64,000 nt of DNA, taken from the NCBI GenBank assembly GCA_017397955.1, contig JAFQHL010000049.1:1-64000 (forward strand), in the 5' to 3' direction. This document shows positions 31,321 to 50,778 of the stretch, piece after piece (positions within the stretch are counted from its first letter, which is position 1; each line of letters starts with the position of its first letter). Source of the DNA: Clostridia bacterium. Its GTDB lineage: Bacteria > Bacillota > Clostridia > Oscillospirales > CAG-382. The position numbers were made by a program, and so were the translations under genes. Under the pieces are notes generated by a model. It searched no databases and was not told the origin of the DNA. It worked only from the letters and a program-made list of their open reading frames with translations.

Positions 31321-31355
31321 CGGGGCAAGTTTTGCCTTTAAGAGAATATGTTTAA

Positions 31356-31401
31356 CAAAAAAGCTTGCGGCGTAAGTTTTACTTGTGCCGCAAGCTTTTT
31401 T
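31356..31401. terminator. strong bidirectional terminator left of the inversion segment
   Basis: AAAAAAGCTTGCGGC pairs with GCCGCAAGCTTTTTT around a 15-base loop. It ends the EamA gene on the plus strand, and on the minus strand stops leftward transcription from the promoter at 31473-31501. Confidence 0.82.
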
Positions 31402-31423
31402 GTCGGTTGACTTATCTATCATT

Positions 31424-31449
31424 GCGTAGAACTGTTTAGTCTACGCAAA
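31424..31449 (+). other. left inverted recombination site (IRL) of the inversion segment
   Basis: A 26-bp site whose reverse complement occurs without mismatch at 32862-32887. Its core is GCGTAGA-N9-TCTACGC: two 7-bp inverted arms around the asymmetric spacer ACTGTTTAG. That is the layout of a tyrosine-recombinase crossover site. The identity stops exactly at the core on the outer side and three bases beyond it on the inner side. Confidence 0.88.
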
Positions 31450-31472
31450 CCTATTTTTACTAAATCTGACTA

Positions 31473-31501
31473 ATTATACCATAATCCTCCCGTTTTGTCA
31501 A
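31473..31501 (-). promoter_or_regulatory. outward consensus promoter inside the inversion segment
   Basis: On the minus strand TTGACA (31496-31501), exactly 17 bases, TATAAT (31473-31478): both boxes perfect. It fires leftward through IRL into the terminator at 31356-31401. After inversion of 31424-32887 it would fire rightward through the other repeat, giving a leader of about 75 nt before the tadZ-like start at 32921. Confidence 0.85.
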
Positions 31502-31671
31502 CGCATTTGTTGTCAAAATTAGTGAAATTTTGCAAAAAAATGTCGAAACAAGGGGCTGTTTTTTCCGAATATTATATATGTTTGTGTTTTTAGGGGGTCA
31601 AAGCATTGGTCATGGTAAAAAGCATTTTGTTTTGAATAAATATTAAAAATTTATACAAATAAGGAGTTTTT

Positions 31672-32796
31672 ATGAGAAAAGGCGAGAATATCAGAAAAAG
31701 AAAAGACGGCAGATGGGAAGGGCGATACAAAAAAGGCTACAAGCCCAACGGCAGCATTATGTATGCTTCCTTGTACGGAAAAACATATAGCGAGGTTAAA
31801 CAAAAAATGCAGCTTGCATTAAAGCAACAACCCGCTGATGAAAAAACCAAACACACGGGTGCTGCAGTATCTTTTGCGGAATTGCTAAGGATGTGGCTTG
31901 AAACAAACTGCATACGCTTAAAAGGCGGCACCAAAAACAAATACAGCAATTTAATCAGAACTCATATTATACCAAAACTGGGCAATGTAAATGTTTTGCA
32001 AATTACGGATACACTTATAAACAACTTTCTTTACGAAAAAAGCTTACACGGAAGATTAGACGGGGCGGGGGGATTATCTCCCAGCAGCGTGCGTTGCCTA
32101 TCGTACGTAATTTCCTCCGCCCTTAAATTTGCCGTGGCAGAAGATTTGTGTCCGCCTTTGAAAAGCAAAATATGCAAGCCTTGCGTTGCAAAAAGCGATC
32201 TGACAATACTGTCTGCAAAAGAGCAAGCGGTTTTGGAAAAAGCAATTTGCAAAGATTTTACGCCAACAAACGCAGGAATAATGATATCGCTTTATACAGG
32301 TCTTCGTATAGGAGAGATTTGTGCTTTGGAATGGAAAGACGTGGATTTAGAAGCAAAATCTATATTTGTAAGACATACCGTTTCTCGAATAGAAGCAAGG
32401 GAAGGCCAACGAAAAACGACCTTAATTTTAGACGAACCCAAAACGCCCTCCTCCAAAAGGCTTGTCCCTATTCCCCTGCCTTTGTTTTCTTATCTTGCCG
32501 AATACAAAAAGACGTCAAACTTTCTTTTTGTCGCATCTGAAAAAGAAACGTTTGTAAGCCCGCGAACTTATGAAGCAAGATTCCACAAGGTGTTGAAAAA
32601 GCACAACATAAACAACATCAACTATCACACCTTGCGCCACACTTTTGCTACCCGTTGTATAGAAGTTGGTGTAGATGTAAAATCTTTAAGCGAAATACTC
32701 GGGCACTCTAATGTTTCTGTAACATTAAACACCTATGTTCATTCTTCTATCGAAATGAAAAGAAAACAATTGGATAAGCTTATGTCATTAGCATAA
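31672..32796 (+). CDS. tyrosine recombinase, probable inversion enzyme of the segment
   Basis: A 374-residue phage-integrase-family recombinase. It has an AP2-like N-terminal DNA-binding domain (RKRKDGRWEGRYKKG, about residues 8-22), a SAM-like core-binding domain (about 65-150) and a catalytic domain with R202 (TGLRIGE), H319 and R322 (YHTLRH), H345 (LGHSN) and Y355 (LNTYVH), so the catalytic set is complete. The start has AAGGAG five bases upstream. No other mobile-element gene accompanies it. The inverted, not direct, flanking repeats suggest a dedicated DNA invertase rather than an ICE or prophage integrase. Confidence 0.92.
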   Translation: MRKGENIRKRKDGRWEGRYKKGYKPNGSIMYASLYGKTYSEVKQKMQLALKQQPADEKTKHTGAAVSFAELLRMWLETNCIRLKGGTKNKYSNLIRTHIIPKLGNVNVLQITDTLINNFLYEKSLHGRLDGAGGLSPSSVRCLSYVISSALKFAVAEDLCPPLKSKICKPCVAKSDLTILSAKEQAVLEKAICKDFTPTNAGIMISLYTGLRIGEICALEWKDVDLEAKSIFVRHTVSRIEAREGQRKTTLILDEPKTPSSKRLVPIPLPLFSYLAEYKKTSNFLFVASEKETFVSPRTYEARFHKVLKKHNINNINYHTLRHTFATRCIEVGVDVKSLSEILGHSNVSVTLNTYVHSSIEMKRKQLDKLMSLA

Positions 32797-32832
32797 TTAA
32801 CAAGGGTAGTTTTTGTGGTCAAAAAACAAAAA

Positions 32833-32864
32833 AACGGCACTGTGCGCCGTTCTCCGTTGTTTTT
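32833..32864. terminator. terminator between recombinase and right inverted repeat
   Basis: AACGGC / GCCGTT stem with inner C-G pair and TGT loop. On the plus strand a T-run follows after an eight-base gap (weak). On the minus strand it is followed directly by TTTTTGTTTTTT (strong). It should limit recombinase read-through into the pilus operon. Confidence 0.6.
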
Positions 32865-32887
32865 GCGTAGACTAAACAGTTCTACGC
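32862..32887 (-). other. right inverted recombination site (IRR) of the inversion segment
   Basis: An exact reverse complement of 31424-31449, with the core arms GCGTAGA and TCTACGC around the spacer in the opposite direction. Recombination with IRL would invert 1.46 kb including the recombinase gene. The tadZ-like gene starts 33 bp further on. Confidence 0.88.
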
Positions 32888-32920: not shown

Positions 32921-33985
32921 ATGATGAAGATTAAGTTGGCGATTTTAGAAAGCGATAGAGTGTATTTGAACCGCATTGTAAATGTTTTTGGGGCGAAGTG
33001 TGCAGACAAATTTGAAATCTATTCGTTTACAGATATGGATGCTGCTCTTTCTACGTTGGAATCCGCAAAGATAGAGGTGCTGATTGCTAGTGACGCCTTT
33101 GAGGTTGATGTCAGCAAGCTGCCTAAACGTTGCGGATTTGCTTATTTTGTGGACTCTGCAGATATTGAGACGTTTAACGGGCAACGCGTAATATGCAAGT
33201 TTCAAAAGATTGATTTAATATATAAACAAATATTAAGCATTTATTCTGAAAACGCCAGTAATGTTTCCGGCTTAAAGCTTGGTGATGACAGCAGTAAGAT
33301 TCTTTTCTTCCAGCCTGTAAGCGGCGGTACCGGTGCTTCCACCATGGCGGCGGCCTGCGCTACTTATTTTGCAAGCAAGGGCAAGAAAACCTTGTATTTG
33401 AATCTTGAAAAATTTGGTTCTTCCGGTGTGTTCTTTGAGGCTGAAGGTCAATTCGATATGAGTGACATTATCTTTGCACTTAAGAGCAAAAAGGCTAATC
33501 TTTCAATAAAACTGGAAAGCTGTGTAAAGCAAGCGGAAAACGGCGTTTGTTTTTATGCTCAATCTAAAATTGCTCTTGATATGATGGAGCTTAGTTATGA
33601 GGATATTACCAGACTGATTAACGAGCTTAGCCTTACGGGGTCTTACGATTACATAGTTGTAGATACAGACTTTTCTATTGAGAAAGATGCGCTTAACCTT
33701 TATCGCAAAGCACACACCGTTGTTTGGGTAGGCGACGGGTCTGAGATGTCCAACATAAAGCTTTTTAGGGCGTTTAACGCTATGAAAACTCTTGAGCAGA
33801 GCGCAGACTCTTCTATTCTTAACAGATTGGTTCTCATTTATAATAAGTTCAGCAACAAGACCAGTAAGACACTTGATGATATCGGCGTTAAAAACATTGG
33901 CGGTGCGCCCCGATTTGAACATGCTACAGCAGCGCAGGTGCTCCAGCAATTGTCCGGAATGGAAATGTTTGACAAACTAATGTAA
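32921..33985 (+). CDS. tadZ: TadZ/CpaE-like ParA-family protein
   Basis: A 354-residue protein: N-terminal receiver-like domain (about 1-110, starts KIKLAILESDRVYLNRIV), then a MinD/ParA-type ATPase domain with a deviant Walker A VSGGTGAST (about residues 139-147) and DYIVVDTDF Walker B region. TadZ/CpaE proteins localise the Tad pilus machine at the pole. It is the first gene of the operon; the 33 bp before it contain AAGGGGTG as ribosome binding site but no promoter. Confidence 0.85.
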   Translation: MMKIKLAILESDRVYLNRIVNVFGAKCADKFEIYSFTDMDAALSTLESAKIEVLIASDAFEVDVSKLPKRCGFAYFVDSADIETFNGQRVICKFQKIDLIYKQILSIYSENASNVSGLKLGDDSSKILFFQPVSGGTGASTMAAACATYFASKGKKTLYLNLEKFGSSGVFFEAEGQFDMSDIIFALKSKKANLSIKLESCVKQAENGVCFYAQSKIALDMMELSYEDITRLINELSLTGSYDYIVVDTDFSIEKDALNLYRKAHTVVWVGDGSEMSNIKLFRAFNAMKTLEQSADSSILNRLVLIYNKFSNKTSKTLDDIGVKNIGGAPRFEHATAAQVLQQLSGMEMFDKLM

Positions 33986-34000: not shown

Positions 34001-35239
34001 GTGGATTTTGAACAGGAACAAGCCATAGTTTCGGAAATAAAAAGATATGTAACAGAAAACCTACCGCTTAGCAAAATGGAAGACGAGGAGCTTGAAGAGC
34101 AGATAGAGGAGATTGTTGCTCAAAAGCTTCAGGGTATATATTGTTCAATTGACCAACGCGTTTCCATAGTACAACAGGTTTACAGCTCTATCAGAGGTTT
34201 TGGTCTTCTTGATTCCATAATTAGTGACGATACCATAACAGAGGTTATGATAAACGGTCCTGAAAATGTGTTTATAGAACAAAGCGGTCGCTTGTTTAAG
34301 TTGGATAAGCAATTTGAAAGCCAAAGAAGGCTGGAAGATATTATACAGCGTATAGTTGGTTTGGCAGGTCGTGAGGTTAATCAGGCAAACCCTATATGCG
34401 ATACACGCCTTCCCGACGGTTCTCGTGTTAATGTGGTGCTTCCCCCTATTGCGCTGTGCGGTCCTACCGTTACAATTCGTAAGTTTTCAAAAACCCCTAT
34501 GACCATAGAAAAGCTTATCCAGTACGGCTCTATTACCAAAGAAATAGCGGATAAGCTTCAACTGCTTGTAAAGGCGAAGTACAACATTTTTATAAGCGGC
34601 GGTACCGGCTCCGGTAAAACAACATTTCTTAACGCTTTGTCTAATTACATACCGAAGGACGAACGTGTTATAACCATAGAAGACTCGGCAGAGCTTCAAA
34701 TTACGGGCGTAGATAACCTTGTAAGCCTTGAAACAAGAAATGCCAACGCATCCGGCGCAGGTCAAATAACGATCCGTGACCTTATTAAGTCTTCTCTGCG
34801 TATGAGACCGGAACGAATAGTTGTCGGCGAAGTTCGTGGCGGCGAGGCGTTGGATATGCTTCAGGCGATGAACACCGGCCACGATGGTTCTCTTTCCACA
34901 GGCCACGCAAACTCTACGGAGGATATGCTAAGCCGTCTTGAAACCATGGTGTTGCAGGGTGCAGCCGGCTTACCTCTGGAAGCTATACGTCAGCAGATAG
35001 CATCGGCGGTTGACATAATCATCCACTTGTCCAGACTTCGTGATAAGTCTAGAAAAACTATGGAGATCACAGAGGTTGTGGGATACGAAAACGGTAAAAT
35101 TATTCTTAACCCCCTTTATGTTTTTGAAGAAGACGAGAACAGCACTCTTGAAAAGGTATCCGGTAGTCTTAACAGAACCAAAAACGCAATGAAGAACGAT
35201 TTTAAGCTTAAACTTGCAGGCATTAAAACCGAAATATGA
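34001..35239 (+). CDS. cpaF: CpaF/TadA pilus-assembly ATPase
   Basis: A 412-residue secretion ATPase of the Tad subfamily. N-terminal helical domain, then the RecA-like core with Walker A SGGTGSGKTT (about residues 202-211), the Asp/His boxes around GEVRGGEALDMLQAMNTGHDG (about 277-297) and the family-typical STGHANS. It powers assembly of Flp pili from the inner face of the membrane. Starts at GTG with AAGGCGGGTG upstream. Confidence 0.94.
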   Translation: MDFEQEQAIVSEIKRYVTENLPLSKMEDEELEEQIEEIVAQKLQGIYCSIDQRVSIVQQVYSSIRGFGLLDSIISDDTITEVMINGPENVFIEQSGRLFKLDKQFESQRRLEDIIQRIVGLAGREVNQANPICDTRLPDGSRVNVVLPPIALCGPTVTIRKFSKTPMTIEKLIQYGSITKEIADKLQLLVKAKYNIFISGGTGSGKTTFLNALSNYIPKDERVITIEDSAELQITGVDNLVSLETRNANASGAGQITIRDLIKSSLRMRPERIVVGEVRGGEALDMLQAMNTGHDGSLSTGHANSTEDMLSRLETMVLQGAAGLPLEAIRQQIASAVDIIIHLSRLRDKSRKTMEITEVVGYENGKIILNPLYVFEEDENSTLEKVSGSLNRTKNAMKNDFKLKLAGIKTEI

Positions 35240-35248
35240 GGTGTGAAG

Positions 35249-36100
35249 ATGAAAAAGAAAGAAAAGATTATAGAGCCGGAGTATTATTTGTCAGCTACAA
35301 ATATCCCCACTCTAAATTATAAGGTTTACCGCATGAAGCCTTTGGAAAAGATTTTGTATTTTCTCATCGCCTTTGTTGCCGGCGCGGCTGTGGGTTATCT
35401 TTTTTATGGCGGCATAGGCGTAGATGAATTTGGGGAGCCTACAAAGCTTACATGGGTTTTAAACATTACCATTCCCACTATAGTCGGAAGTGTGGCAGGT
35501 TATTTCTTCGTGCCTATGAGGGTTGAAGCAATAATCGAAAAAAGAAGCAAAGAGCTTAACGGTCAATTCAGAGATATGCTTGACTCTTTGACAACGTCTC
35601 TCGGTGCGGGCAAAAACGTTAATGATTCGTTTGTAAGCGTGTACGAAGACCTTAAGGTTCAATATGATGAGGACGCATATATTTTGAAAGAGCTGGAGGT
35701 TGTTATTTCCGGTATACATAACAACATTGCAATAGAGGATGTTCTTGAAGATTTTGGTCGCCGCAGCAACAATGATGATATTTTAAGTTTTGCAAATGTA
35801 TTTAAGATAAGCTATCGCAAAGGCGGTAACATAAAAGACATCATAAGAAACACTCATTCTATCCTGAGTGATAAGATGGAAATATCCGAGGATATTGAAA
35901 CCCTTGTTACTTCCAATAAGATGGAGCAAAATATAATGGTAGTAATGCCTATCGCTCTTATTGGCGTTATAAAGATGATGAGTCCCGAGTTTGCGGCTAA
36001 CTTCGTTACTACCACGGGTATAATTTCCACAACCGTAAGTATAGTTATTTTTGTTGCAGCTTATTTTATCGGCAAAGCTGTTCTTAACATTAAAATATAA
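35249..36100 (+). CDS. tadB: TadB-like pilus-assembly membrane protein
   Basis: A 283-residue T2SF-family platform protein with two N-terminal helices (about residues 32-52 and 68-90), a cytoplasmic helical domain (GQFRDMLDSLTTSLGAGKNVNDS, a typical T2SF signature; I give it here only as motif region about 100-125) and two C-terminal helices. The ATG at 35249 is chosen because GAGGTG precedes it; an overlapping GTG is two codons upstream. Confidence 0.85.
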   Translation: MKKKEKIIEPEYYLSATNIPTLNYKVYRMKPLEKILYFLIAFVAGAAVGYLFYGGIGVDEFGEPTKLTWVLNITIPTIVGSVAGYFFVPMRVEAIIEKRSKELNGQFRDMLDSLTTSLGAGKNVNDSFVSVYEDLKVQYDEDAYILKELEVVISGIHNNIAIEDVLEDFGRRSNNDDILSFANVFKISYRKGGNIKDIIRNTHSILSDKMEISEDIETLVTSNKMEQNIMVVMPIALIGVIKMMSPEFAANFVTTTGIISTTVSIVIFVAAYFIGKAVLNIKI

Positions 36101-36112
36101 GGAGGTTACCTT

Positions 36113-36988
36113 ATGTTCGGGTTAGGCACTTTAGATCTTGTTATAATCGGCGCAGGTGCTGTTTCGTTGCTGATATGGCTGGTAGTGTACCTTGGCGGCC
36201 TTAAACACAATTCTATGTTTGAGGTGCTTGAGGAGAAAGAATATCCTTTTAAAGAGATATACGGTATGGGCTATTTTGTGCTTGAGCTTTTTAAATACAA
36301 GTACAAAAGCAAGGGTGACCGTAAGCTTAGACAGCAACTTGATGTGCTTTACGGTGAAAAATACAGCGAGTATTATTTAAGAGTAATACATTCCCAGCAA
36401 ATAACTTTGGCGTTGACGGTGCTTGTCCTTGCGTTTGCCTTTTACGGTTTGACCGGCGAGGTCTTGGCATGCGCGATAGGCGTTCTCTTTGCAGGCCTTG
36501 CGTATTACTATTTCGGTACCGTTACCGCAAAGCGTATAACCAAGCGTTCTGAAGAACTGTTGCACGATTTTTCGGAGGTTGTTTCAAAGCTGGCACTGCT
36601 TACCAATGCGGGTATGATACTTAGAGAAGCGTGGCAGGAGGTTGCCTATGCAGGCACCAGCACAATATATACCGAAATGCAAATAGCCGTTAACGAAATG
36701 AATAACGGCGTTGCAGAGATAGATGCGGTTTATAATTTTGGTACCCGTTGTATTATTCCGGAAATAAAGAAGTTTACTTCCACCATAATACAGGGCATGG
36801 TTAAGGGCAACAGCGAGCTTACAAATATGCTTCAAACCCAAAGTAAAGAGGTTTGGCAGCTTAAAAAACAGCTTGTAAGACGTGAAGGCGAAAAAGCTGC
36901 AAGCAAGCTGCTTTTGCCTATATGCATTATGTTTGTTGGTATACTTGTTATGATATTGATACCCATTTTTACAAATTTGGGTGGTTAA
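36113..36988 (+). CDS. tadC: TadC-like pilus-assembly membrane protein
   Basis: A 291-residue T2SF-family protein: N-terminal helix (about 6-28), a helix pair near 98-130, the cytoplasmic domain with DFSEVVSKLALLTNAGM (about residues 147-163), and a final helix (about 266-288). It pairs with the TadB-like protein as the inner-membrane platform for the CpaF ATPase. AAGGAGG is well placed. Confidence 0.87.
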   Translation: MFGLGTLDLVIIGAGAVSLLIWLVVYLGGLKHNSMFEVLEEKEYPFKEIYGMGYFVLELFKYKYKSKGDRKLRQQLDVLYGEKYSEYYLRVIHSQQITLALTVLVLAFAFYGLTGEVLACAIGVLFAGLAYYYFGTVTAKRITKRSEELLHDFSEVVSKLALLTNAGMILREAWQEVAYAGTSTIYTEMQIAVNEMNNGVAEIDAVYNFGTRCIIPEIKKFTSTIIQGMVKGNSELTNMLQTQSKEVWQLKKQLVRREGEKAASKLLLPICIMFVGILVMILIPIFTNLGG

Positions 36989-37034
36989 TATAAGCTGATT
37001 TTCAGCAAGACATTTGGGAAAGGAGGAGAATGAT

Positions 37035-37256
37035 ATGCTTATGCAAAAGATTAAGTTCGCAGGTATGGCGGCAAAGGCAAAGCTTCGCAAATTCTTTTCT
37101 GACGAAAAAGGCGAAGTGAATATTGTTGCGATAGTTGTAATTATCGGTATAGCAGTTCTTTTGGCGTTGATTTTTAAAGAGCAAATATCTAATTTGTTAA
37201 CCTCTTTGTTCGGAACTATCAACCAAAGCGCTACCAATGCTGTTACCCCGACTTAA
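37035..37256 (+). CDS. Flp-type pilin (Flp1-like)
   Basis: A 73-residue candidate major pilin. Short basic leader ending DEKGE, then an uninterrupted hydrophobic helix (VNIVAIVVIIGIAVLLALIF) and a short polar tail. Processing is expected after the Gly of KGE by the A24 peptidase encoded at 43990. The start at 37035 is chosen for the GGAGGAG site; an upstream ATG at 37014 would overlap that site. Confidence 0.82.
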   Translation: MLMQKIKFAGMAAKAKLRKFFSDEKGEVNIVAIVVIIGIAVLLALIFKEQISNLLTSLFGTINQSATNAVTPT

Positions 37257-37275
37257 TAACCCTTTTTCGCCCCAC

Positions 37276-37313
37276 GTGCAGGGGAGCTTTGTTGTGCAAG
37301 GCTCCCCTTGCAC
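37276..37313 (+). other. hairpin downstream of the pilin gene
   Basis: GTGCAGGGGAGC pairs with GCTCCCCTTGCAC around a 13-base loop, 20 bases after the pilin stop, with no T-tract. It could protect the 3' end of a processed pilin mRNA or thin out downstream transcription, raising pilin over the other operon products. Confidence 0.5.
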
Positions 37314-37345
37314 AAAGAATTTATGTTTAGAAGAGGAAGATAAAG

Positions 37346-38002
37346 ATGACAGGAAAACTTATTACTAAAATAAAAGAGGAAAAGGGTGCGGTGCACATAG
37401 TAGAGGCTACCTTTATTTTTCCTATTATGTTTATTATCCTTTTCTTTTTGATTTATATGGGTAACGCCTATTACATAAAATCACAAATAGAGCACATTGT
37501 TGTAGAGGAAGCTGTTAAGGGCGCCGGTCATTGTGTTGACCCGGTGCTTAAAAATCTTGAAGTCGGAAGTATTCCCTCCGTGTCCAATGTTGACTTAGAC
37601 CCTTACAGATACTTTAGCGGGATGGACGGTGTGGAAAGACAGATAAGCCAGGAGGTAGAGCAGAGAATACAAAACACCTCCACCTCCTTTTTCAGAAATA
37701 TGCAGCCGGTTATAAAGACATCCCGCGCAAACATTGCTAAATACAACAATTTTTTGGTATACTCTACTTTCTCTGTTGAAGTAAAGTGCGAGCTGGGATT
37801 TCCCATTAAATTTTTGGGTAGCGCAACGCCTACCATAATGACTATAAGCACTCGCTCTGAAATAGCAGTGAATGATACTGCAGAATTCATCCGCAACACC
37901 GATATGCTTATCGACTATTTTATAAACACCAAAATCGGTAGGTCTATAAGCGACGTTTTTGCAAAGATTAACGAATTTATAAACAAATTCGCAGGAAGTT
38001 AA
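37346..38002 (+). CDS. TadE-like minor pseudopilin
   Basis: A 218-residue protein with the TadE hallmark near the N-terminus: KGAVHIVEATFIFPIMFII, i.e. short leader, conserved Glu in EAT and a hydrophobic helix. The extracytoplasmic part has a conserved-looking Cys (GAGHCVDP, near residue 62). It should be a minor pilin or assembly factor of the Tad pilus. Confidence 0.82.
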   Translation: MTGKLITKIKEEKGAVHIVEATFIFPIMFIILFFLIYMGNAYYIKSQIEHIVVEEAVKGAGHCVDPVLKNLEVGSIPSVSNVDLDPYRYFSGMDGVERQISQEVEQRIQNTSTSFFRNMQPVIKTSRANIAKYNNFLVYSTFSVEVKCELGFPIKFLGSATPTIMTISTRSEIAVNDTAEFIRNTDMLIDYFINTKIGRSISDVFAKINEFINKFAGS

Positions 38003-38015
38003 GGAGGACTTTATA

Positions 38016-41000
38016 ATGAAGTTTTTTGAAAAGACTAAAGGCGCAATATCCATATTCCTTGTTATTATCCTTGTGCCTATGATGACGGTGTCTTCCTTAT
38101 TTATAGATGCCAGCAAAGTTAAGCTGGGTAAGGCTATGGTTACTTCTGCAGGTGACTTGGCTTTAAACACCGCCCTTACCAATTACGATACCGAACTTAA
38201 GGATTTGTACGGCCTTTTGGCTACCGCACAAAACACAGATGATTTGTTTGCAAGGCTTGAAGATTATTACCGTACTTGTATCATTTCTGCAGGTGTAAGC
38301 GATGAAGACGCAACCTTGTATACAGATCAAATTATGGCATCGTTAGGTTTGGTTTCCCAAAGCGGCGATACTGCTGATATTATGAACATGCAGCTTGTAG
38401 ATTTCACCGCTGAAAAACAGCCGAACGCTAATCTTGCCAACGCAACGATTCTAAAAAAACAAATAATAGATTTTATGAAGTATAGAGCACCGATAAACAC
38501 GGGGCTTAGTTTTATTTCTGCTTTAAGCAGCTTTTCCACCTTAAGCAAGCAGTCAGAACTTGTAGAAAAAAAGCAAGAGTATTATGAAGCACAGCAAACC
38601 GTATTGGAGGATTTGAAAACTGCTTGGTCGCATATCGCGGCGTACAACAAAAGTGTGATTGTAACCGATGCAAATTACCTTCAAAACCTTAAGCCTACCT
38701 TGGACGGCTACGCAGACGATTATAAGGATTACGGTAAGCGCACCATAATGTCGCTTTACAAAAAATATGCCAGCGTTGTTCAATATAAATATAATTTAGA
38801 GGTTTTTGAAGAAAAGGAAAAGAAATACGATATAGTTACGGGTGAATTGGGTGACGAAGTTGATGTATATCGTATAAAGTACAACAACACCAATTATTAT
38901 TCTTATTTAAGTGACAACTACAATAACCCCTATGACTTTGTAGAGAAAAAGTTCCCTACAGTACAGCAAGTGAAAAAAGCAATAGAAGGATATTACAACG
39001 CTAAACAAACATTGAATAATAAACATGCCCCTCATTACAGCAATTCTTATTACGATATACAGTTTATAGCCCAAAAGAAGGCAGAGATAGAAGCATATAC
39101 AAGCGCAGCAATAAACTTCTTTTTGGCATATCAAAAGTTTAAGAATGTAGAGCTTTGGCTTGACGGTTATGTTGAGGCTATAGTTAAGGATGAGGACGGA
39201 AATACAATAACAAAGGAATCCATCCTTTCTGAGCGTTATACTTACGGTAATGTAACAAAAACATTGGGCGAATGGATAGCTTCCATTAACGCAGAAGGCG
39301 AATATAGCAATAGAATGGGAACTTTTATGGATGATGCCGGTAAGTATAAGTACAGTGTTGGCCAAGCAATTGCTGCTTACAGAGATCAATGGGCAATAAC
39401 CGATGACGTGGATATAAGCACAGCGATTACAAATATACACGATGTTGCGGCAGGACAAGTGACCACGCTGGAGCAGGCGATGGAACACTTAACAGAGGCG
39501 GTTAAATTCCTTAACAGTGCAAAAACCAAGCTTACAACTACTGTTTCAACAGCAAAACAAGCGTGGAGCGGAGTTGCAGGCGACAATTCAATAAAAGACA
39601 CCTCCTTGGCTAAGCAGGATAAAGCGGAAATAAATCAGCTTGATACTTATCTTAACGCAGAGAATATCGATAGGCTTGTAAGAAGGCTGGAAAACATTAA
39701 CAACGACCTTACTGCGGTAAGAGATCAGGTTAAAGAATATAAATTTGCAGATGTTTTTATTGGCGATATAGAAGGCTATAGCGGCGATAAGGGCTTGGAA
39801 ACCGTTGCAGGCAACAAATGGAACGATTTGAACAGCCTTTCTATGGAAGAAACAGAGGTTACAAATACCGCTACAACCCGCGCGACATCTGCTTGGAAAG
39901 CGGGTAATATAGATACCTCTTGGATAAATCAGTCTGCCCATCAGCCCAACCTGCTTCAAGATAAGGTTTCTTTGTATACCTATCTTTCCTCCCATTTTTC
40001 AAACACTAAACCGGCAGAGCTTGAAAATACACAGAGCTCTCCCAGCAGTTCGGAAAAGACTGAGGATGAAGGGAACGGAAAAAACTTTTTCCAAAGCATA
40101 AAAGACACATCTAAAGGTAAATCAGATTCCGCTACAAGCGGTACCGGTGATGGTCAGGCTGCAACAGAGGACTCAAAAAATAACAATTTGACCAGCAACG
40201 AGTCTCGACCCTCCAAAACATCTTCGGGCGACGGTGGTGCGGAAACCCCCTCCGGCGGTATAAATACCAACATAGACGATGATGATTCCGGTGAAGGCGC
40301 GGCAGGCAAATCTGCAAGTGCTTTGGGCGGCTTGTTCAGCTCGGAATTTTTGTCTGCTATTGCCAACATGGGCGAGAGCTTGCGTGACAAGCTGTACATC
40401 TCCGATTATGTGATGAGTATGTTCAGCTATGACACTATTGAGAACGAGTATATAAAGAAGAATAATGTGCAAACAATACCGGAAGGAGCAATAGAAACCT
40501 TAACAAAGTGCCCTATAAACGCAACCAACAACTATGCCTACGGTTCGGAAATAGAGTATATCATTTACGGCGGCACTAACTCCTCTAATCTGGGTAAGGC
40601 ATACGGCAGTATTTTTGCCATCCGTTTTGGGTTTAACCTTGTTTATGCTTTTGCTACCTCGGAAATTCGCGAAAGCGCACTTGCTATCGCAACCCCCATT
40701 TCCGCGGCAACCCTTGGTATAATCCCCGTTCCTCTTATACAGGCTGTTATCATTATCGGTATAGCCTGTTGTGAGTCTGCGTTGGATTTAGGTGCCCTAC
40801 GTGACGGTTATGAAGTGCCCCTTTATAAATCCTCTAAGACCTGGCGTTGTTCTATCACCGGCTTGATGAATATGGCTGAAAACAAGGCAGCGGATGCGTT
40901 AAGCACCGTCGCAAAGGACGTTGCAAACAGCGCTGTAGATGCCGGCGTAAACAAACTTAATGATCTGCTTAATATGACCGATGAAAAGTTTAATGAGCTT

Positions 41001-41933
41001 ATTAGCGGCAGTTTTAACGATGTGAAGGCAACGGTAACGAGTGCCTACGACCAGATAATAACCGAAAATGCGGAGGCGGCAATACAGCAGCTTACCACCC
41101 TTGTTAATTCTGCAGTTGAAAAAGCCAGCTTTTTGGAAGCGAACGAAACCTATGAGAATAAAAAAACGCAAATGAAAACATGGGTAAAGGAGCAGCTGCA
41201 GGCGTGGGGTGCCCAGCAAACGGGTGATGACTTGGCAGCTAAAGCCAAGCGCGCGGCAGTAAACGTTATCGTCCAAAACAGCGATGCGTGTATAAATGCA
41301 TTGTTTGATGAAGTTGAAAAAGCAATAAGAGAAACTCCGGCAGTTGATTCCATTGACAGTATGCTAAATCAAGGTACGATTTTGGTACAAGATAAGGTGG
41401 ATAAAGTCGGTGGTGTTGTTATGGAAAAAATTGCCGCTGTACGCAATCAAATATCCTATGTCTTTAATAATACCGAAAACGAAATTAAGAGTATGAAGGA
41501 TGAGCTTATTAACAGTCTTTCCGACTCCATAAACAGCGGTGCGGACAATTTGAAGGAAAAGCTAAACAGCGGTATTGACAAAATTTTCGGCACCACCGGC
41601 GGCGCGCAAAGCGGCGACAGCAGCGGCACCGGTGCCGCATCCTTGTTCTCCTTCAGCTACAGTGATTATTTAAGACTGTTTTTGCTTATTGCTTTGTTTG
41701 CAAACGAAGGCAAGACTATTTTGAGGACTGCAGATGTAATTGAAGCCAATATGAAGCACAAAGGCGACGATGACTTTAAGCTGGAAAAATCCGCAGCATA
41801 CGTAAGGGTTACTGCAGAAGTCTTGGTAAAGCCCACTCTGTTGGCACTGCCCCTTTTTGCGGATGTGGAGAATAACCCTGTGGATAACACCGGTTGGTAC
41901 ACGATTACCTACACGGGTATTGCAGGATATTAA
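38016..41933 (+). CDS. DUF5702 protein (large TadG-like surface component)
   Basis: A 1305-residue protein. N-terminus KGAISIFLVIILVPMM is a pilin-like helix followed by FIDASKVK, matching DUF5702 proteins found in clostridial Tad loci. Then a long alpha-helical, coiled-coil-rich region (about 170-640), a Ser/Thr/Asn/Gly-rich linker (about 655-755), a hydrophobic domain (about 860-930), further amphipathic helices, and C-terminal helix near 1200-1250. The exact role is unknown; the position between TadE-like genes suggests a large pilus tip, base or wall-spanning part. Confidence 0.8.
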   Translation: MKFFEKTKGAISIFLVIILVPMMTVSSLFIDASKVKLGKAMVTSAGDLALNTALTNYDTELKDLYGLLATAQNTDDLFARLEDYYRTCIISAGVSDEDATLYTDQIMASLGLVSQSGDTADIMNMQLVDFTAEKQPNANLANATILKKQIIDFMKYRAPINTGLSFISALSSFSTLSKQSELVEKKQEYYEAQQTVLEDLKTAWSHIAAYNKSVIVTDANYLQNLKPTLDGYADDYKDYGKRTIMSLYKKYASVVQYKYNLEVFEEKEKKYDIVTGELGDEVDVYRIKYNNTNYYSYLSDNYNNPYDFVEKKFPTVQQVKKAIEGYYNAKQTLNNKHAPHYSNSYYDIQFIAQKKAEIEAYTSAAINFFLAYQKFKNVELWLDGYVEAIVKDEDGNTITKESILSERYTYGNVTKTLGEWIASINAEGEYSNRMGTFMDDAGKYKYSVGQAIAAYRDQWAITDDVDISTAITNIHDVAAGQVTTLEQAMEHLTEAVKFLNSAKTKLTTTVSTAKQAWSGVAGDNSIKDTSLAKQDKAEINQLDTYLNAENIDRLVRRLENINNDLTAVRDQVKEYKFADVFIGDIEGYSGDKGLETVAGNKWNDLNSLSMEETEVTNTATTRATSAWKAGNIDTSWINQSAHQPNLLQDKVSLYTYLSSHFSNTKPAELENTQSSPSSSEKTEDEGNGKNFFQSIKDTSKGKSDSATSGTGDGQAATEDSKNNNLTSNESRPSKTSSGDGGAETPSGGINTNIDDDDSGEGAAGKSASALGGLFSSEFLSAIANMGESLRDKLYISDYVMSMFSYDTIENEYIKKNNVQTIPEGAIETLTKCPINATNNYAYGSEIEYIIYGGTNSSNLGKAYGSIFAIRFGFNLVYAFATSEIRESALAIATPISAATLGIIPVPLIQAVIIIGIACCESALDLGALRDGYEVPLYKSSKTWRCSITGLMNMAENKAADALSTVAKDVANSAVDAGVNKLNDLLNMTDEKFNELISGSFNDVKATVTSAYDQIITENAEAAIQQLTTLVNSAVEKASFLEANETYENKKTQMKTWVKEQLQAWGAQQTGDDLAAKAKRAAVNVIVQNSDACINALFDEVEKAIRETPAVDSIDSMLNQGTILVQDKVDKVGGVVMEKIAAVRNQISYVFNNTENEIKSMKDELINSLSDSINSGADNLKEKLNSGIDKIFGTTGGAQSGDSSGTGAASLFSFSYSDYLRLFLLIALFANEGKTILRTADVIEANMKHKGDDDFKLEKSAAYVRVTAEVLVKPTLLALPLFADVENNPVDNTGWYTITYTGIAGY

Positions 41934-41954
41934 GAATTAAGGAGAAAACAGCAA

Positions 41955-42596
41955 ATGAAAAAATTTTTATCACTCTTAAGCCTGTGCCTTGCTTTAAGTC
42001 AGGTACTGTGTTGCTGCGGCGGCGAGGTGGCAGATACAGATAAAGGAAACGAAGCTTCAAGCGGTACAAGCTCTTCTGAAAATATTACCTCCACGGTCGT
42101 TTCAGAGGAGGAGTCTAAAAGTGAGCTTTTGACCGGAACGCTTAAGATGCCAACGGTGGACGTATATGTAGATACTCCCGGTTATAACTGTATAGAAGAA
42201 GGCTATACACGTATATTTTTCCATAGCGGTAAAAAGTACATAACCTTTACCTGTTTATATATAGATACCGCAAGCAGTCTTTCCGAATGCCACGATAAGA
42301 TGATACCTACATTTATGAATAGTGTTAGTGATCATCATTTAGTAAATGAATTGGGAGAGACTACAGATAAAACCCTAGAGGTTAACGGTATAGAAACATA
42401 TAATTTTGAAGGCGTTTTGAATGCAGGAGAGATACCTGTTTACGATGCTTACATATATGGCTACTCTTTCATCTTCCAAGGTTACCCCTGCTCTATAATC
42501 GGCGTGGTTACTGATGAATCACAGCCCGAGGAAGAGAAAGAGCTTGTAAAAGACATTGTTGATGAAATGATGACAACAGTAAGAGATACCCCGTAA
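41955..42596 (+). CDS. lipoprotein of the pilus operon, unknown function
   Basis: A 213-residue protein with a signal peptide and lipobox-like LSQVLCCCGG (Cys near residue 20-22), an acidic Ser/Thr/Glu linker to about residue 55, and a globular domain of about 150 residues with no family I recognise. It probably sits on the outer face of the membrane. The gene spacing (21 bp before, 32 bp after) places it within the Tad operon. Confidence 0.72.
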   Translation: MKKFLSLLSLCLALSQVLCCCGGEVADTDKGNEASSGTSSSENITSTVVSEEESKSELLTGTLKMPTVDVYVDTPGYNCIEEGYTRIFFHSGKKYITFTCLYIDTASSLSECHDKMIPTFMNSVSDHHLVNELGETTDKTLEVNGIETYNFEGVLNAGEIPVYDAYIYGYSFIFQGYPCSIIGVVTDESQPEEEKELVKDIVDEMMTTVRDTP

Positions 42597-42628
42597 AACA
42601 TTAAGTAATGCAAAAGGAGAGGTCAAAT

Positions 42629-43993
42629 ATGAAAAAAAGAATCAGGGAAGAGTCCGGCTCGGTTACCATAGAAGCTACGATTTCTCTTTCTGCATTTATG
42701 TTTACAATAGTAACTTTGCTTACCATTGTAAATATATGTCTGGTTCAGGCAAAGATAAGCGTAGCTATTAACTCTACCGCCAAGGAGCTTTCGCATTACT
42801 CATATATGTATTCCTTAACGGGTATTCCCGGTAGTAAGGCAGAGCTTGTAAAGAAAGCGGACGGGACGGCACAGGATGTTAACAGCGTGCTTTCCAAAGC
42901 CAATACCGTGTTTACCGAGATACAGAACATCGGCAACGCGACCCGTGTTGAATCGACTGATATAAGCGGTATGCTATCAGATATAAAAACCAGCTACGAT
43001 AACGCTTCTTCTGCCGGTGGCGCGTTGAAGGAGCAATTGATGGAGCTTTCCAAGGACCCCAAGGGTGTAGCAATGGGTCTTGCAAGGATGGCAGCTGTGG
43101 ATGGCTGGGATTTTGCCACCTCCCGTCTTATAGCGGCTCCGTTAGCGAAAGGGCTTTGCAAAAAGAACTTGGTTGCAGAAAAAAACGGCGACGTTGAAAG
43201 TTATTTAAGGGGCTTGGGCGTTGTTCCTTCAAGCAACGGCTCTTATTACGATGGGCTTGATTTTTCAAAATCCACATTGTTCCCTTCGGATTCTAACGAG
43301 ATACGAATAACCGTGTCTTATGACGTAAAGGTAATAGCATTGTTGCCTATTGATTTCTCTTTCCATTTTACACAAACCGCGGTTACCCACGGTTGGTTGT
43401 GCGGTGAAAATTCTTACAGAAGCACTACAGAGGCGTTGGACGTTCAAAACAACAGCAATATTTGGACAGAGGGCACTATTCAGGAAAGAGTAGAGCTTAT
43501 GCGCCATCAGGGCATAGCTGAATATAAGGATCAAGGCTATTTGCAGGTAGCAGGCGCAAGCTTTTCCGATGTTCATGTATATAACGAGACTACAAAAGAG
43601 TTTGTGGCGTTCCATTCTATGAACCCTTTGTACAGCGCACCGGGGTCTGATACTTTAACTTTAGATGACATAAGCGAAACTGCCATAAAGGAATCTATTG
43701 AGTATCTTTGTGCGGGCATTAACGATTCTACCAAGGATCTTGAGACCGTCAAAACAAAACCAACCAGCGCACAGGATTGCGTAAAGGATTGCAAAGACAG
43801 CACTTGCAAAATCGTTTTGGTTATTCCTCAGGACAAAGATTTAGATGCAAAAATGCAATCTATTATTGATAAATGCAATACCCGCGGAGTAACGATAGAA
43901 TTGATGCCCGCTTACGGTAACGGCGCCAGAACTACCACGGTAGCACCTGACGAGGGTGAAGCACCCGAAGAGGGAGGAGAAACAGAAAAATGA
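42629..43993 (+). CDS. second TadE/pseudopilin-like protein with long C-terminal domain
   Basis: A 454-residue protein. The N-terminus EESGSVTIEATISLSAFMF is pilin-like with the conserved Glu, then a helix to about residue 45. The extracytoplasmic region contains a Cys-pair segment (CVKDCKDSTC, about residues 385-394). The last 20 residues are Glu/Pro/Gly-rich. The start at 42629 is chosen because AAAAGGAGAGG lies 8 bases upstream. Its stop overlaps the prepilin peptidase start. Confidence 0.75.
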   Translation: MKKRIREESGSVTIEATISLSAFMFTIVTLLTIVNICLVQAKISVAINSTAKELSHYSYMYSLTGIPGSKAELVKKADGTAQDVNSVLSKANTVFTEIQNIGNATRVESTDISGMLSDIKTSYDNASSAGGALKEQLMELSKDPKGVAMGLARMAAVDGWDFATSRLIAAPLAKGLCKKNLVAEKNGDVESYLRGLGVVPSSNGSYYDGLDFSKSTLFPSDSNEIRITVSYDVKVIALLPIDFSFHFTQTAVTHGWLCGENSYRSTTEALDVQNNSNIWTEGTIQERVELMRHQGIAEYKDQGYLQVAGASFSDVHVYNETTKEFVAFHSMNPLYSAPGSDTLTLDDISETAIKESIEYLCAGINDSTKDLETVKTKPTSAQDCVKDCKDSTCKIVLVIPQDKDLDAKMQSIIDKCNTRGVTIELMPAYGNGARTTTVAPDEGEAPEEGGETEK

Positions 43994-44655
43994 TGCTTGC
44001 TCTTGAGATTTTTGTGTGTGCGGTTCTGCTTGCTTGCGGTTATGTGGGTGTTTGTTGTTATTTTAATAATACAAAACTTACAGAAATAAACTTTGGTTTG
44101 CTTAAGCTTAATAAAAAAAGAGTTGCGTATTTGACAGTAGGTGCTGTTTCGGTTGCAATATTGCTGTGGTGTTTGCACCAGCTGTATTCGATCGATACAC
44201 TCGGTATCCTTAACTTGGCATCTTTGGTTTTAGTTATATTACCTGCGGCTGCAGTTGATTACAAGCAGCAAAAAATCCCCAACATTTTTTTGTTGGCAGG
44301 TTTGATAATCAGATGTGTGTTTTTTGTAATATCTTATGTGAAAGATTTTGACGGCGCATGGACAATAACAAAAGATTCCTTGATTGGTGCCGCAGTAATA
44401 GGGCTGTTCTTCTTGCTTTTGCTGGTCATTTTCAAAGACAGTATAGGCATGGGCGATGTAAAGCTTTTTGCATTGATGGGGCTTTATCAAGGTTTGTGGG
44501 GCGTTATCAATTCTGTGTTCTTTTCGCTTTTGGTTTCGTTCTTTTTGTCAATCGGATTGTTAATCACAAAGAAAAAAGGGCGTAAGGACACTATATCTTT
44601 TGGCCCAAGCATATATTTGGGAACTATAATAGCCATATGTATGGCAGGTATGTAA
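43990..44655 (+). CDS. A24 prepilin peptidase (CpaA/TadV-like)
   Basis: A 221-residue polytopic aspartic peptidase with the two catalytic motifs: D90 in AVDYKQQKIPN and D156 in the GxGD motif SIGMGDVKLF. It cleaves leader peptides of the Flp pilin and the TadE-like proteins at the inner face of the membrane. Overlaps the preceding gene by four bases (ATGATG/TGA). Confidence 0.9.
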   Translation: MMLALEIFVCAVLLACGYVGVCCYFNNTKLTEINFGLLKLNKKRVAYLTVGAVSVAILLWCLHQLYSIDTLGILNLASLVLVILPAAAVDYKQQKIPNIFLLAGLIIRCVFFVISYVKDFDGAWTITKDSLIGAAVIGLFFLLLLVIFKDSIGMGDVKLFALMGLYQGLWGVINSVFFSLLVSFFLSIGLLITKKKGRKDTISFGPSIYLGTIIAICMAGM

Positions 44656-44670: not shown

Positions 44671-45981
44671 ATGAAAAAGTACAGAGCACTTGTTCCTGTT
44701 GTGTTGATAGTGGTTATGCTTGCATCATGGTATATGCTAATATCTAATGCAGCAAAGATTGAAAACCAATACAATACGTATCTTACCGCTGCCAGAGCAT
44801 ATGCGAAGGACGGTACCAAATACGCTATTGAAAACTATAATCTTGCGTTATCTATTAAAAGTTCTCCTGAGCTTTATAAGGAAATAGCTGACTATTACAA
44901 AAATCAAAAAAACAAAGATGCGTATCTTGAGTGGTGCGAGGATTTTCTTGAAGTGTATCCAAAAGAAGCCTTGGCATACGAGTGCCTTGTTGAAGCTTAC
45001 GTTGAGGAAGGGGCCTACGCTGACTGTTTTGATTTGATTTACACCGCACAGAAGAGAAAAATCAGCTCTGCATATTTGGATAAAGTAGCATCGGATTTAA
45101 AATATTCCCACAAAGTAGTTTCCGGCGGTTATGAAGATGTTGCTCTGTACAGCAACGGATTTTGCGCCGTTAGTAATAAAGAGCGTTGGGGCTTTGTAGA
45201 TGCGTATGGTCAGGTTAGAATAGGAGTACAGTATCTTTCCGTAAGCAACTATACACAGTATAATGTTGCTTCCGTAGTAGATCAAGAAGAAGCCGCTTAT
45301 TACATAGATAATGCGGGCGAAAAGGTATTGGTTGCTAAAGGAAATATAAAAAGCTTGGGCGCATATGTAGGTAACGTTATTGTTGCAAAAAGAGATGACG
45401 ATAAGTACGTATATGTTAACACTAAGCTTGAAACGGTTTTTGGTGAATATGATTACGCTTCTGCGATGAACAGCGGAGTAGCTGCTGTGAAAAAAGACGG
45501 CAAATGGCATCTTATAAATGAACAGGGCGCAAAGATAGGAAATGACACGTATCTGGACGTGAAGGTGGATGCCAACAACATTGCTTACAATAACGGTAGA
45601 GCGTTTGTTTCCAAAACAGAAGGAAAGTATATTCTTGTAGATGGCTCCGGCAAGCAAGTCGGCAACCTTGTTTTTCAAGATGCAGAGCCTTTTATGGGCG
45701 GTGATTGGGCAGCGGTAAAGCTTAATGATAAATGGCAGTTTATTGACATTAACGGTAAGCTTGTATCGGATAAAACTTATGCTGAGGCAAGGTCTGCTTC
45801 AAACGGTATGGCGGCAGTATGCATAGATGATTTGTGGGGCTTTGTTGACGAAAAAGAAAACGTTGTTATAGAGCCTAAGTTTGAAGATGCTTTGTACTTT
45901 AATGACAAAGGCAGTTGTTTTATAAAAGAAGACGAAAAATGGCGACTTCTCAAGTTGTACAGATTAAACAGGGAGGGATAA
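44671..45981 (+). CDS. WG-repeat protein with TPR-like N-terminus
   Basis: A 436-residue protein: N-terminal membrane anchor (about residues 5-25), a TPR-like helical region (about 40-140), and a beta-rich part of WG (KWG) repeats. Repeats are seen as ERWGFVDAYGQVRI, KWHLINEQGAKI, KWQFIDINGKLV and LWGFVDEKENVV. WG repeats are thought to be protein-binding surfaces; the role in this operon is unknown. Confidence 0.82.
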   Translation: MKKYRALVPVVLIVVMLASWYMLISNAAKIENQYNTYLTAARAYAKDGTKYAIENYNLALSIKSSPELYKEIADYYKNQKNKDAYLEWCEDFLEVYPKEALAYECLVEAYVEEGAYADCFDLIYTAQKRKISSAYLDKVASDLKYSHKVVSGGYEDVALYSNGFCAVSNKERWGFVDAYGQVRIGVQYLSVSNYTQYNVASVVDQEEAAYYIDNAGEKVLVAKGNIKSLGAYVGNVIVAKRDDDKYVYVNTKLETVFGEYDYASAMNSGVAAVKKDGKWHLINEQGAKIGNDTYLDVKVDANNIAYNNGRAFVSKTEGKYILVDGSGKQVGNLVFQDAEPFMGGDWAAVKLNDKWQFIDINGKLVSDKTYAEARSASNGMAAVCIDDLWGFVDEKENVVIEPKFEDALYFNDKGSCFIKEDEKWRLLKLYRLNREG

Positions 45982-45983
45982 AT

Positions 45984-47567: not shown

Positions 47568-47589
47568 TTTGGTAAGGGAGCACATTGCA

Positions 47590-48108
47590 GTGAAATTGTC
47601 AAAGATATCAATAAAAACCCTTCAATTTATCACAATTGCAATTGTGTTGCTTTTCATTTTGCTTAGTTCATTTGATTGCATAAATATATACGAGAAAAGC
47701 ACCGGCCATTCTCAGATAGCAATTCAAGAGTCGGAGGACATTAAGGAGCACCCAGTATATACCAAATCCTGCAACAACGAATTGTATACTGTTGCAGTTA
47801 TTGGAGGTATAGAGGTTGTTCTCATATTTTTGATGTGTTTCAAATTAAGCATTACTGCAGCGATCCTTGAATTGCTTATATCAATCGGAACACTGTTGCT
47901 GGGATATATTGAAAGCTGTTTTCCTATGATTTACGGGGGTGGTGCTCCAATGTATACTATTACCTATGATGTTACCATCATAGGATACTTAGTTGTACTG
48001 TTTGCAGTTATAAATTTAGTTCTAACTATATTACTGCAGATTAAAAAGAAAACTATTGTGAAGGGCAAGAGTGAAAACGACGTTAACAACATTCCCAATT
48101 GGACTTGA
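47590..48108 (+). CDS. four-TM membrane protein of unknown function
   Basis: A 172-residue protein with four predicted helices (about residues 8-30, 60-80, 83-110 and 130-158) and a basic C-terminus. No family recognised. Starts at GTG nine bases after TAAGGGAG. The following 180 bp keep a coding-like reading frame shifted relative to this one (see 48111-48266), so the gene may once have been longer or followed by a now broken neighbour. Confidence 0.6.
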   Translation: MKLSKISIKTLQFITIAIVLLFILLSSFDCINIYEKSTGHSQIAIQESEDIKEHPVYTKSCNNELYTVAVIGGIEVVLIFLMCFKLSITAAILELLISIGTLLLGYIESCFPMIYGGGAPMYTITYDVTIIGYLVVLFAVINLVLTILLQIKKKTIVKGKSENDVNNIPNWT

Positions 48109-48110
48109 CA

Positions 48111-48266
48111 ACGCGAAACTTCACAATGTGTTGTTAGAAATCTGTGCGTTGATAAACGGTGGCATTATTGCTTTTTCCATTATCGCTGGCGCATAGATGC
48201 TATTGGTCAACGATGGTATGCTTCGCATTATACTTGTTGTATGGTCGCTTATAGCTGTATTTGATG
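48111..48266 (+). pseudogene. possible degraded membrane-protein fragment
   Basis: In the frame shifted against the preceding gene the DNA reads as two hydrophobic stretches (ending LINGGIIAFSIIAGA and IILVVWSLIAVFDVT) separated by one in-frame TAG and ended by a second TAG. Such composition is unusual for spacer DNA in an operon whose other gaps are 10-30 bp. No start with a ribosome binding site remains. Confidence 0.3.
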
Positions 48267-48290
48267 TTACATAGACGTGGGGGAATAAGG

Positions 48291-49058: not shown

Positions 49059-49071
49059 GGAGAGATTAAAA

Positions 49072-50763: not shown

Positions 50764-50778
50764 GGAGGGGGACAGAAT

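What the first reader, a model, noticed from the sequence alone, without database searches (positions are those of the whole stretch)
31424..32887. Self-encoded inversion switch placed to turn a Tad pilus operon on and off
Seen: a tyrosine recombinase gene lies between two 26-bp perfect inverted repeats. Each has the shape of a crossover site (7-bp arms, asymmetric 9-bp spacer). Just inside the left repeat a perfect TTGACA-N17-TATAAT points outward. The pilus operon begins 33 bp beyond the right repeat with a ribosome binding site but no promoter. Inversion would move the consensus promoter to face tadZ with a leader of about 75 nt. In the present orientation the promoter fires into a strong terminator. 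Established: tyrosine recombinases invert promoters between inverted sites (for example in C. difficile and Bacteroides). Inferred: this segment carries its own enzyme and gives ON/OFF control over 18 genes, including pili, phospho-signalling and a giant surface protein.
Basis: partly seen in the sequence, partly recalled or inferred. Interest (0 to 1): 0.95.

Follow-up and report, generated by a model that had tools for sequence, protein, structure and literature searches.

The report
Self-flipping promoter cassette for pili
In front of a bacterial pilus operon lies a DNA segment that holds its own recombinase gene and an outward-facing promoter between two identical inverted repeats; flipping the segment would likely switch the whole operon on or off, and the same cassette recurs in front of other surface-structure genes in many gut Clostridia.

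Summary
In detail: 26-bp perfect inverted repeats (31424-31449, 32862-32887) enclose a tyrosine recombinase gene and a 12-of-12 consensus promoter aimed outward at a terminator; the Tad operon starts 33 bp beyond the other repeat. The site pair is unique in the genome. It is not a one-off: 65 of 86 deduplicated relatives have flanking inverted repeats, and 26 of 33 in a later set. The outward promoter recurs (53 of 70 outward, 1 of 70 inward). The crossover core differs between loci but is identical in the two copies of each (67 of 67). Homologous operons lie on the promoter side in some species and on the far side in others. New here: paired GTCA-type repeats 12-13 bp apart beside the gene (58 of 62 test loci, 2 of 31 other integrases) and a predicted N-terminal arm-binding fold, so an ICE/phage-type integrase seems to have become a promoter invertase. 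Inversion itself was not observed; no reads were available, and all four Tad-linked copies found face OFF. New variant of a known kind (inverton).

The parts
31424..31449 (+). left crossover site (inverted repeat)
   Evidence: 26 nt, 100% complementary to 32862-32887; only two copies in the genome
32862..32887 (-). right crossover site (inverted repeat)
31672..32796 (+). tyrosine recombinase, 374 aa, with predicted N-terminal arm-binding-type domain
   Evidence: Pfam Phage_integrase 1.7e-28; AlphaFold2 pLDDT 90.8, strands 7-9, 15-23, 29-36 and helix 39-52; nearest solved fold Tn1549 integrase
31473..31501 (-). outward promoter TTGACA-N17-TATAAT
   Evidence: 12 of 12; same position in relatives, 53 of 70 outward against 1 of 70 inward
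31596..31612 (+). 5' arm-type repeat pair GGTCA-N7-GGTCA
   Evidence: family test
32805..32821 (+). 3' arm-type repeat pair, degenerate (GGTAG-N7-GGTCA)
   Evidence: does not pass the strict unit list
31355..31403 (.). stem-loop terminator met by the promoter in the present (OFF) orientation
   Evidence: 23-nt arms, 91% complementary; fold
32829..32855 (-). terminator-like stem-loop inside the right repeat
   Evidence: an outward terminator here is found in only 12 of 70 relatives
32921..33985 (+). tadZ, first gene of the controlled run
   Evidence: Pfam TadZ-like_ARD 1.2e-47
34001..44655 (+). Tad genes: T2SSE ATPase, two membrane proteins (one T2SSF-like, below cut-off), Flp1-like pilin (37035-37256), TadE-like, DUF5702 1305-aa protein, two proteins without family, prepilin peptidase
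   Evidence: Pfam
44671..51806 (+). WG-repeat protein, DUF6382/FHA protein, 191-aa ORF, PP2C phosphatase, Ser/Thr kinase, two small proteins
   Evidence: Pfam
51790..61479 (+). 3229-aa protein with Big_2 domains, last gene of the run
   Evidence: Pfam; a hairpin with T-run follows at 61522-61554 (read by eye)

Best explanation
This is a self-contained invertible promoter cassette: its own tyrosine recombinase is predicted to flip the 1464-bp segment between the two inverted repeats, which would bring a consensus promoter to face tadZ and likely turn the Tad/kinase/surface-protein operon on, whereas in the assembled orientation the promoter points the other way, into a terminator. Shown by sequence: repeats, enzyme, promoter, stem-loop, a gap without promoter, and the same layout in a large family. 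Inferred: that strand exchange occurs in the core of the repeats, that the 18 genes are one transcription unit, and that populations are mixed. Proposed further: the recombinase's arm-binding domain grips the paired GTCA repeats on both sides of its gene, as ICE and phage integrases grip their arm sites; this would help assemble the synapse and could bias the direction of switching or autoregulate the gene, since the 5' pair lies 36-100 bp before the gene in 55 of 56 pairs measured.
For: Anatomy. Inverted repeats in 65 of 86 deduplicated loci (60 of 73 with full flanks) against 4 of 86 for direct repeats; later set 26 of 33 (22 of 29 without near-copies). Outward promoter score 11 or more: 53 of 70 outward, 1 of 70 inward, 3% of shuffles; later set 19 of 26 against 1 of 26. 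Core positions -2..+2 identical between the two copies in 67 of 67 loci, near background between loci (0.26-0.36). Arm-type pairs in 58 of 62 loci not used to spot them, 2 of 31 other integrases; later set 28 of 33, 0 on the minus strand. Of 71 repeat-bearing loci an outward operon lies within 600 bp on the right only (OFF) in 36, left only (ON) in 14, both in 14, none in 7. Homologous operons on opposite sides: FHA/kinase, L034 right vs L061, L070 left; SipW/TasA-like, L038 left vs L075, L095, L040 right; exopolysaccharide, L037 left vs L107, L120, L134, L100 right; SipW/TasA-like, L252, L253 left vs L227 right. R212, K257, H319, R322, H345, Y355 invariant in 43 sequences (their catalytic roles are recalled).
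Against: No read or assembly shows this segment inverted. All four Tad-linked copies found (window, L065, L068, L223) are OFF. Two congeneric pairs with conserved flanks (L037/L251, L252/L253) share one orientation, as do all near-identical copies. 21 of 86 relatives lack a flanking inverted repeat, some because the contig ends. Opposite sides in different species could also come from separate insertions of the cassette. The window's own 3' arm pair is degenerate. Choosing repeats by longest match favours an identical core. Promoter-like matches inside 32880-52000 are somewhat above chance (58 against 42.1, sd 7.6), so downstream genes may have promoters of their own.
Confidence: 0.86

Rival explanations
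1. A minimal integrative or transposable element: the repeats are its ends, used for moving the cassette rather than for flipping it in place.
For: The enzyme's nearest solved relatives are Tn1549 integrase structures. Identical copies sit in records of three genera within a shared larger stretch (L091-L093). PMC8138268 (passages read) calls an arm-binding domain a strong predictor of phage or ICE mobility.
Against: Integrative elements are bounded by direct copies of the core (established knowledge); here the core is inverted (inverted 65 of 86, direct 4 of 86). The conserved outward promoter and adjoining surface operons have no role in this view. The shared stretch of L091-L093 extends well beyond the repeats.
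Confidence: 0.07
2. A real switch by descent, but locked OFF in this genome: the segment no longer flips, or so rarely that the operon depends on another promoter.
For: All four Tad-linked copies found are OFF; the window's 3' arm pair is degenerate; promoter-like matches inside the run are somewhat above chance.
Against: Both sites are still identical over 26 bp, the recombinase frame is intact with its conserved residues, and the promoter is a perfect consensus, none of which would be kept for long without use.
Confidence: 0.05
3. The segment flips, but the promoter's main target is on the left (for example antisense RNA against the EamA gene), and the Tad operon is controlled otherwise.
For: The promoter now points left, toward the 3' end of the EamA gene.
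Against: A strong stem-loop lies in its path; in relatives an outward operon lies within 600 bp on the right only in 36 and on the left only in 14 of 71, so the switch as a rule serves an adjoining outward operon, and here that is Tad.
Confidence: 0.02

Closest known systems
Invertible promoters of gut bacteria (invertons), incl. inverton group 139 / invertase group 35 of Clostridia (PMC11892184; section 8 and passages read)
   Same: Inverted repeats, tyrosine-type recombinase nearby, Clostridia; the paper reports shifting orientation of group 139 invertons in Clostridium sp. D5 and Intestinimonas butyriciproducens.
   Different: The two group 139 invertons whose coordinates are given are about 255 bp long with the enzyme nearby; here the enzyme lies inside a segment of about 1.4-1.5 kb. 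Whether both use the same site motif could not be checked.
Putative fimbrial switch of Providencia stuartii (PMC5903667, passages read)
   Same: Invertible segment that encloses a recombinase ORF beside a fimbrial locus.
   Different: 844 bp with 14-bp imperfect repeats in a proteobacterium; a single case; the passages read say nothing of arm sites.
Hin flagellar switch of Salmonella (PMC5903667 passage; details recalled)
   Same: Recombinase encoded inside the segment that it inverts, with a promoter pointing out.
   Different: Hin is a serine recombinase; here it is a tyrosine recombinase.
Tn1549 / Tn916-type integrases
   Same: Best profile and fold match in the PDB (22% identity); b-b-b-a N-terminal domain; subterminal paired repeats.
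   Different: No element to move: the core copies are inverted and the pair bounds a segment of one gene.
fim switch of E. coli and RecV switches of C. difficile (recalled; named in listings and passages)
   Same: Tyrosine recombinase inverts a promoter for surface structures.
   Different: Recombinases are encoded outside the segment, which is 154-314 bp in the cases listed in PMC5903667.

Membership tests
Invertible-promoter switch (inverton) | inverted repeats flanking the segment | tested here: met
Invertible-promoter switch (inverton) | promoter inside the segment, near one end, facing out | tested here: met
   12 of 12 in the window; 53 of 70 relatives against 1 of 70 inward
Invertible-promoter switch (inverton) | both orientations present in one species or population | not testable with these tools
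   no reads and no second assembly; both orientations are seen only between species
Hin-type self-enclosed switch | recombinase gene inside its own segment | tested here: met
   31672-32796 within 31424-32887
Hin-type self-enclosed switch | serine recombinase | tested here: not met
   Pfam Phage_integrase, a tyrosine recombinase family; works like Hin, is not a Hin
IntTn916-type integrase | N-terminal arm-binding domain of three strands and one helix | tested here: met
   predicted model only, strands 7-9, 15-23, 29-36, helix 39-52; no sequence match of this domain in the PDB
IntTn916-type integrase | beta insertion in the catalytic domain | tested here: inconclusive
   model has strands 236-241 and 249-254 between 230-233 and 263-266; not compared strand by strand
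IntTn916-type integrase | arm-type binding sites near the element's ends | tested here: inconclusive
   paired repeats present in 58 of 62 test loci; binding not shown
Integrative element (ICE/phage) | direct core repeats bounding the element | tested here: not met
   direct-repeat score 15 or more in 4 of 86 loci, inverted in 65 of 86
Inverton group 139 / invertase group 35 (PMC11892184) | same repeat motif and enzyme group | not testable with these tools
   motif and sequences are in supplements not available here; some clade members (L081, L133) do have short adjacent inverted pairs of the same site type

The most novel reading that the evidence does not exclude
A Tn916/Tn1549-type integrase, with its arm-binding domain and paired arm sites kept, has been domesticated into a one-gene promoter-flipping cassette. 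Each copy carries its own private crossover core, so copies in one genome need not cross-react, and the cassette is plugged in front of whichever surface machine a Clostridia lineage gambles with: Tad pili, TasA-like fibres, exopolysaccharide, kinase plus giant surface protein, type VII-like secretion. The arm sites give it controlled, possibly biased, directionality that simple invertases lack.
Probability: 0.55. Interest if true: 0.85.

Novelty: new variant of a known kind. Interest (0 to 1): 0.74.

Why it matters
Promoter inversion is known, and so is a recombinase inside its own segment, but the published reading of arm-binding recombinases is that the domain is a strong predictor of phage or ICE mobility (PMC8138268, passages read). 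A widespread family in which that enzyme type appears to serve as a promoter invertase would change how such genes are annotated, and predicts ON/OFF surface states in poorly cultured gut Clostridia. A recombinase matching at E <= 1e-60 is in 36 of 391 sampled genomes of the class, own genome included; not each of these was checked for repeats. Scans that remove invertible regions overlapping coding sequence, as one study did (PMC8748976, section 12), would drop this cassette. The arm-type repeats make the question of directionality directly testable.

Tried and rejected
Transposon-like reading: tested by direct against inverted repeats, rejected as main reading. Conserved outward terminator inside the 3' repeat: looked likely from the first loci, but only 12 of 70 have one (13 of 70 on the inward strand, 2% of shuffles), so it is not a defining feature. 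Two-orientation proof from near-identical copies: L091-L093, L144/L145, L113/L239 and L254/L255 each share one orientation. L091 against L145 has a ~500-bp flank (82%) at opposite ends, but L145 has no repeat on its 5' side, so I do not lean on it. Contig breaks at the repeats: only L040 and L122 end within 30 bp of an outer repeat edge; suggestive, not used. A closer tadZ in relatives: besides the own genome only 4 weak matches (best 4e-7) in the 40 genomes searched, so the Tad-linked relatives came from the wider scans. Clade label: repeat-bearing rows are only weakly clustered (25 changes, shuffled mean 30.4, 2 of 500 as low), while the 8 outgroup rows split off with support 97. The first tree lacked the window because its stop codon was included; the window is in, and L066, L084 and seven duplicates or near-copies were left out. 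NCBIfam: nothing above its cut-off for the recombinase. Phage 'near' search with L156: no match. The ORF caller used for one search is crude: L064 counts as 'none' although its left flank matches L061's operon, and for the window I set aside a 155-aa ORF that lies antisense to the EamA gene. Literature: the searches listed no paper that, by title or abstract, describes this family or an invertible promoter for Tad pili; most subscription journals are not in that library, and the original PhaseFinder paper was not read.

Full report
What is in the window. Two 26-bp perfect inverted repeats, 31424-31449 and 32862-32887, bound a 1464-bp segment. Inside are a 374-aa tyrosine recombinase (31672-32796) and, on the opposite strand just inside the left repeat, a 12-of-12 sigma-70 promoter (31501-31473). 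That promoter now fires leftward into a stem-loop at 31355-31403 behind an EamA-family gene. Beyond the right repeat, 33 bp separate it from tadZ, and no plus-strand promoter-like match was found in that gap. Inverted in silico, the promoter sits at 32810-32838 with a leader of about 76 nt to tadZ. The 23-bp site occurs nowhere else in the assembly with up to 3 mismatches. The run of 18 genes to 61479 holds Tad genes with a Flp1-like pilin, a prepilin peptidase, an FHA protein, a PP2C phosphatase, a Ser/Thr kinase and a 3229-aa Big_2 protein. In 32880-52000 terminator-like sites are at chance level (18 against 17.1) and promoter-like sites somewhat above it (58 against 42.1, sd 7.6); that the run is one transcript is inferred.

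Relatives. Among 60 relatives of the genome, the eight closest recombinases (35-52% identical) were cut out; seven of eight have flanking repeats scoring 15 or more, and none of 12 more distant recombinase loci scores above 13. With three duplicates removed, 65 of 86 loci (60 of 73 with full flanks) have inverted repeats scoring 15 or more, against 4 of 86 for direct repeats. Mismatched flank pairs reach 15 at the 99th percentile, with a maximum of 26, probably because sites of different loci resemble each other. Of 33 viral-collection loci examined (of 79 fetched), five have such repeats, giving 70 loci. A later set, 33 of the 55 matches listed by a class-wide search, gave 26 of 33, or 22 of 29 without four near-copies.

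Promoter, sites and arms. An outward promoter scoring 11 or more of 13 occurs in 53 of 70 loci, against 1 of 70 on the inward strand and 3% of shuffles; of the 63 scoring 10 or more, 54 have the -10 end 19-49 bp inside the repeat. Later set: 19 of 26 against 1 of 26. The sites share arms (TTTCGYARAGT...ACTYTRCGAAA), while the five central positions are near background between loci (identity 0.26-0.36) yet identical between the two copies in 67 of 67 loci (of the 70, L105, L040 and L122 were left out). Such a pattern is expected if strand exchange needs matching cores; choosing repeats by longest match inflates it somewhat. I also noticed paired GTC-type repeats 12 bp apart (13 at times) on the coding strand on both sides of the gene: 55 of 70 (5' side) and 37 of 70 (3' side), 0 on the other strand, 0.6 and 0.3 in shuffles. 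In the 62 loci not used to spot them, 58 have a pair on at least one side (other strand: 0 on the 5' side, 2 on the 3' side); 13 of 20 clade members without flanking repeats and 2 of 31 other integrases have one. Later set: 28 of 33, 0 on the other strand. The window has a 5' pair (31596-31612) and a degenerate 3' pair (32805-32821).

The enzyme. AlphaFold2 on 43 sequences (pLDDT 90.8) gives an N-terminal b-b-b-a domain followed by helical and catalytic parts. The best solved matches by profile and by fold are Tn1549 integrase. The N-terminal 63 residues alone match nothing in the PDB by sequence. Subterminal repeats plus such a domain are what arm-type sites look like in ICE and phage integrases (established knowledge; PMC8138268, passages). 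That the domain binds these repeats is inferred. No NCBIfam model reaches its cut-off.

What it adjoins, and orientation. Of 71 repeat-bearing loci, an outward operon lies within 600 bp only on the right, away from the promoter (OFF), in 36, only on the left (ON) in 14, on both sides in 14 and on neither in 7 (seven or so of these loci reach a contig end nearby). Neighbours include TasA/SipW-like proteins, exopolysaccharide genes, pilin-like and giant secreted proteins (several names are by eye). Homologous operons appear on opposite sides: FHA/kinase (L034 against L061 and L070), SipW/TasA-like (L038 against L075, L095, L040; L252 and L253 against L227) and exopolysaccharide (L037 against L107, L120, L134, L100). 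The window belongs to an 11-row set (support 99) that mixes Tad-linked and FHA/kinase-linked copies. The Tad-linked ones found, window, L065, L068 and L223, are all OFF. This is comparative evidence for inversion over evolutionary time; separate insertions in either direction could give the same picture, and congeneric pairs with conserved flanks (L037/L251, L252/L253) share one orientation. No reads were available, so inversion in the living population is unproven.

Known and new. Invertible promoters and recombinases inside their own segment are known (Hin; a putative Providencia stuartii fimbrial segment, PMC5903667 passages), and Clostridia invertons with a neighbouring tyrosine recombinase shift orientation in culture (group 139, PMC11892184, section 8 and passages). 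Some members of the present clade also have short adjacent inverted pairs of the same site type (L081, L133), so the two may be forms of one system; I could not test that. New in this work, as far as the searches show: a family-wide one-gene cassette, an arm-binding-type integrase as its likely invertase, paired arm-type repeats, private cores, and a Tad operon as target. A recombinase matching at E <= 1e-60 is in 36 of 391 sampled genomes of the class, own genome included.

Noticed in passing
L141 (G002:C7:61001-80900), 5588-19107: In the same-genus genome G002 the genes behind the switch run on into an AAA protein, a 1503-aa FtsK/SpoIIIE protein and a WXG100 protein, i.e. a type VII secretion-like cluster that may be under the same predicted switch.
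   Followed up: partly
L091, L092, L093: An identical cassette in Butyricicoccus, Blautia and Agathobaculum records lies beside an XRE-like gene and an Erm(B)-type methylase gene, all three in one orientation.
   Followed up: no
L133:2868-4619; L081:11208-11620: Relatives of the recombinase without enclosing repeats have short inverted pairs of the same site type downstream (three in L133, one in L081), like classic short invertons.
   Followed up: partly
L040:1; L122:11260: Two contigs end within 2 bp of an outer repeat edge, as assemblies may do where reads disagree on orientation.
   Followed up: no
L118:1219-9783: On the ON side of one cassette lies a run with an XRE-like regulator, a protein kinase (Pfam), and von Willebrand-like and PP2C-like proteins (by eye), unlike the surface operons elsewhere.
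   Followed up: no
L079, L103, L116 (one isolate, Lapin-023__bin87); genome G396: One genome can carry three or more cassettes; the three of Lapin-023__bin87 have different core sequences, and G396 has five matching recombinases.
   Followed up: partly
window 30955-31422: The 155-aa minus-strand ORF here overlaps the EamA gene on the opposite strand and is probably not a gene.
   Followed up: no
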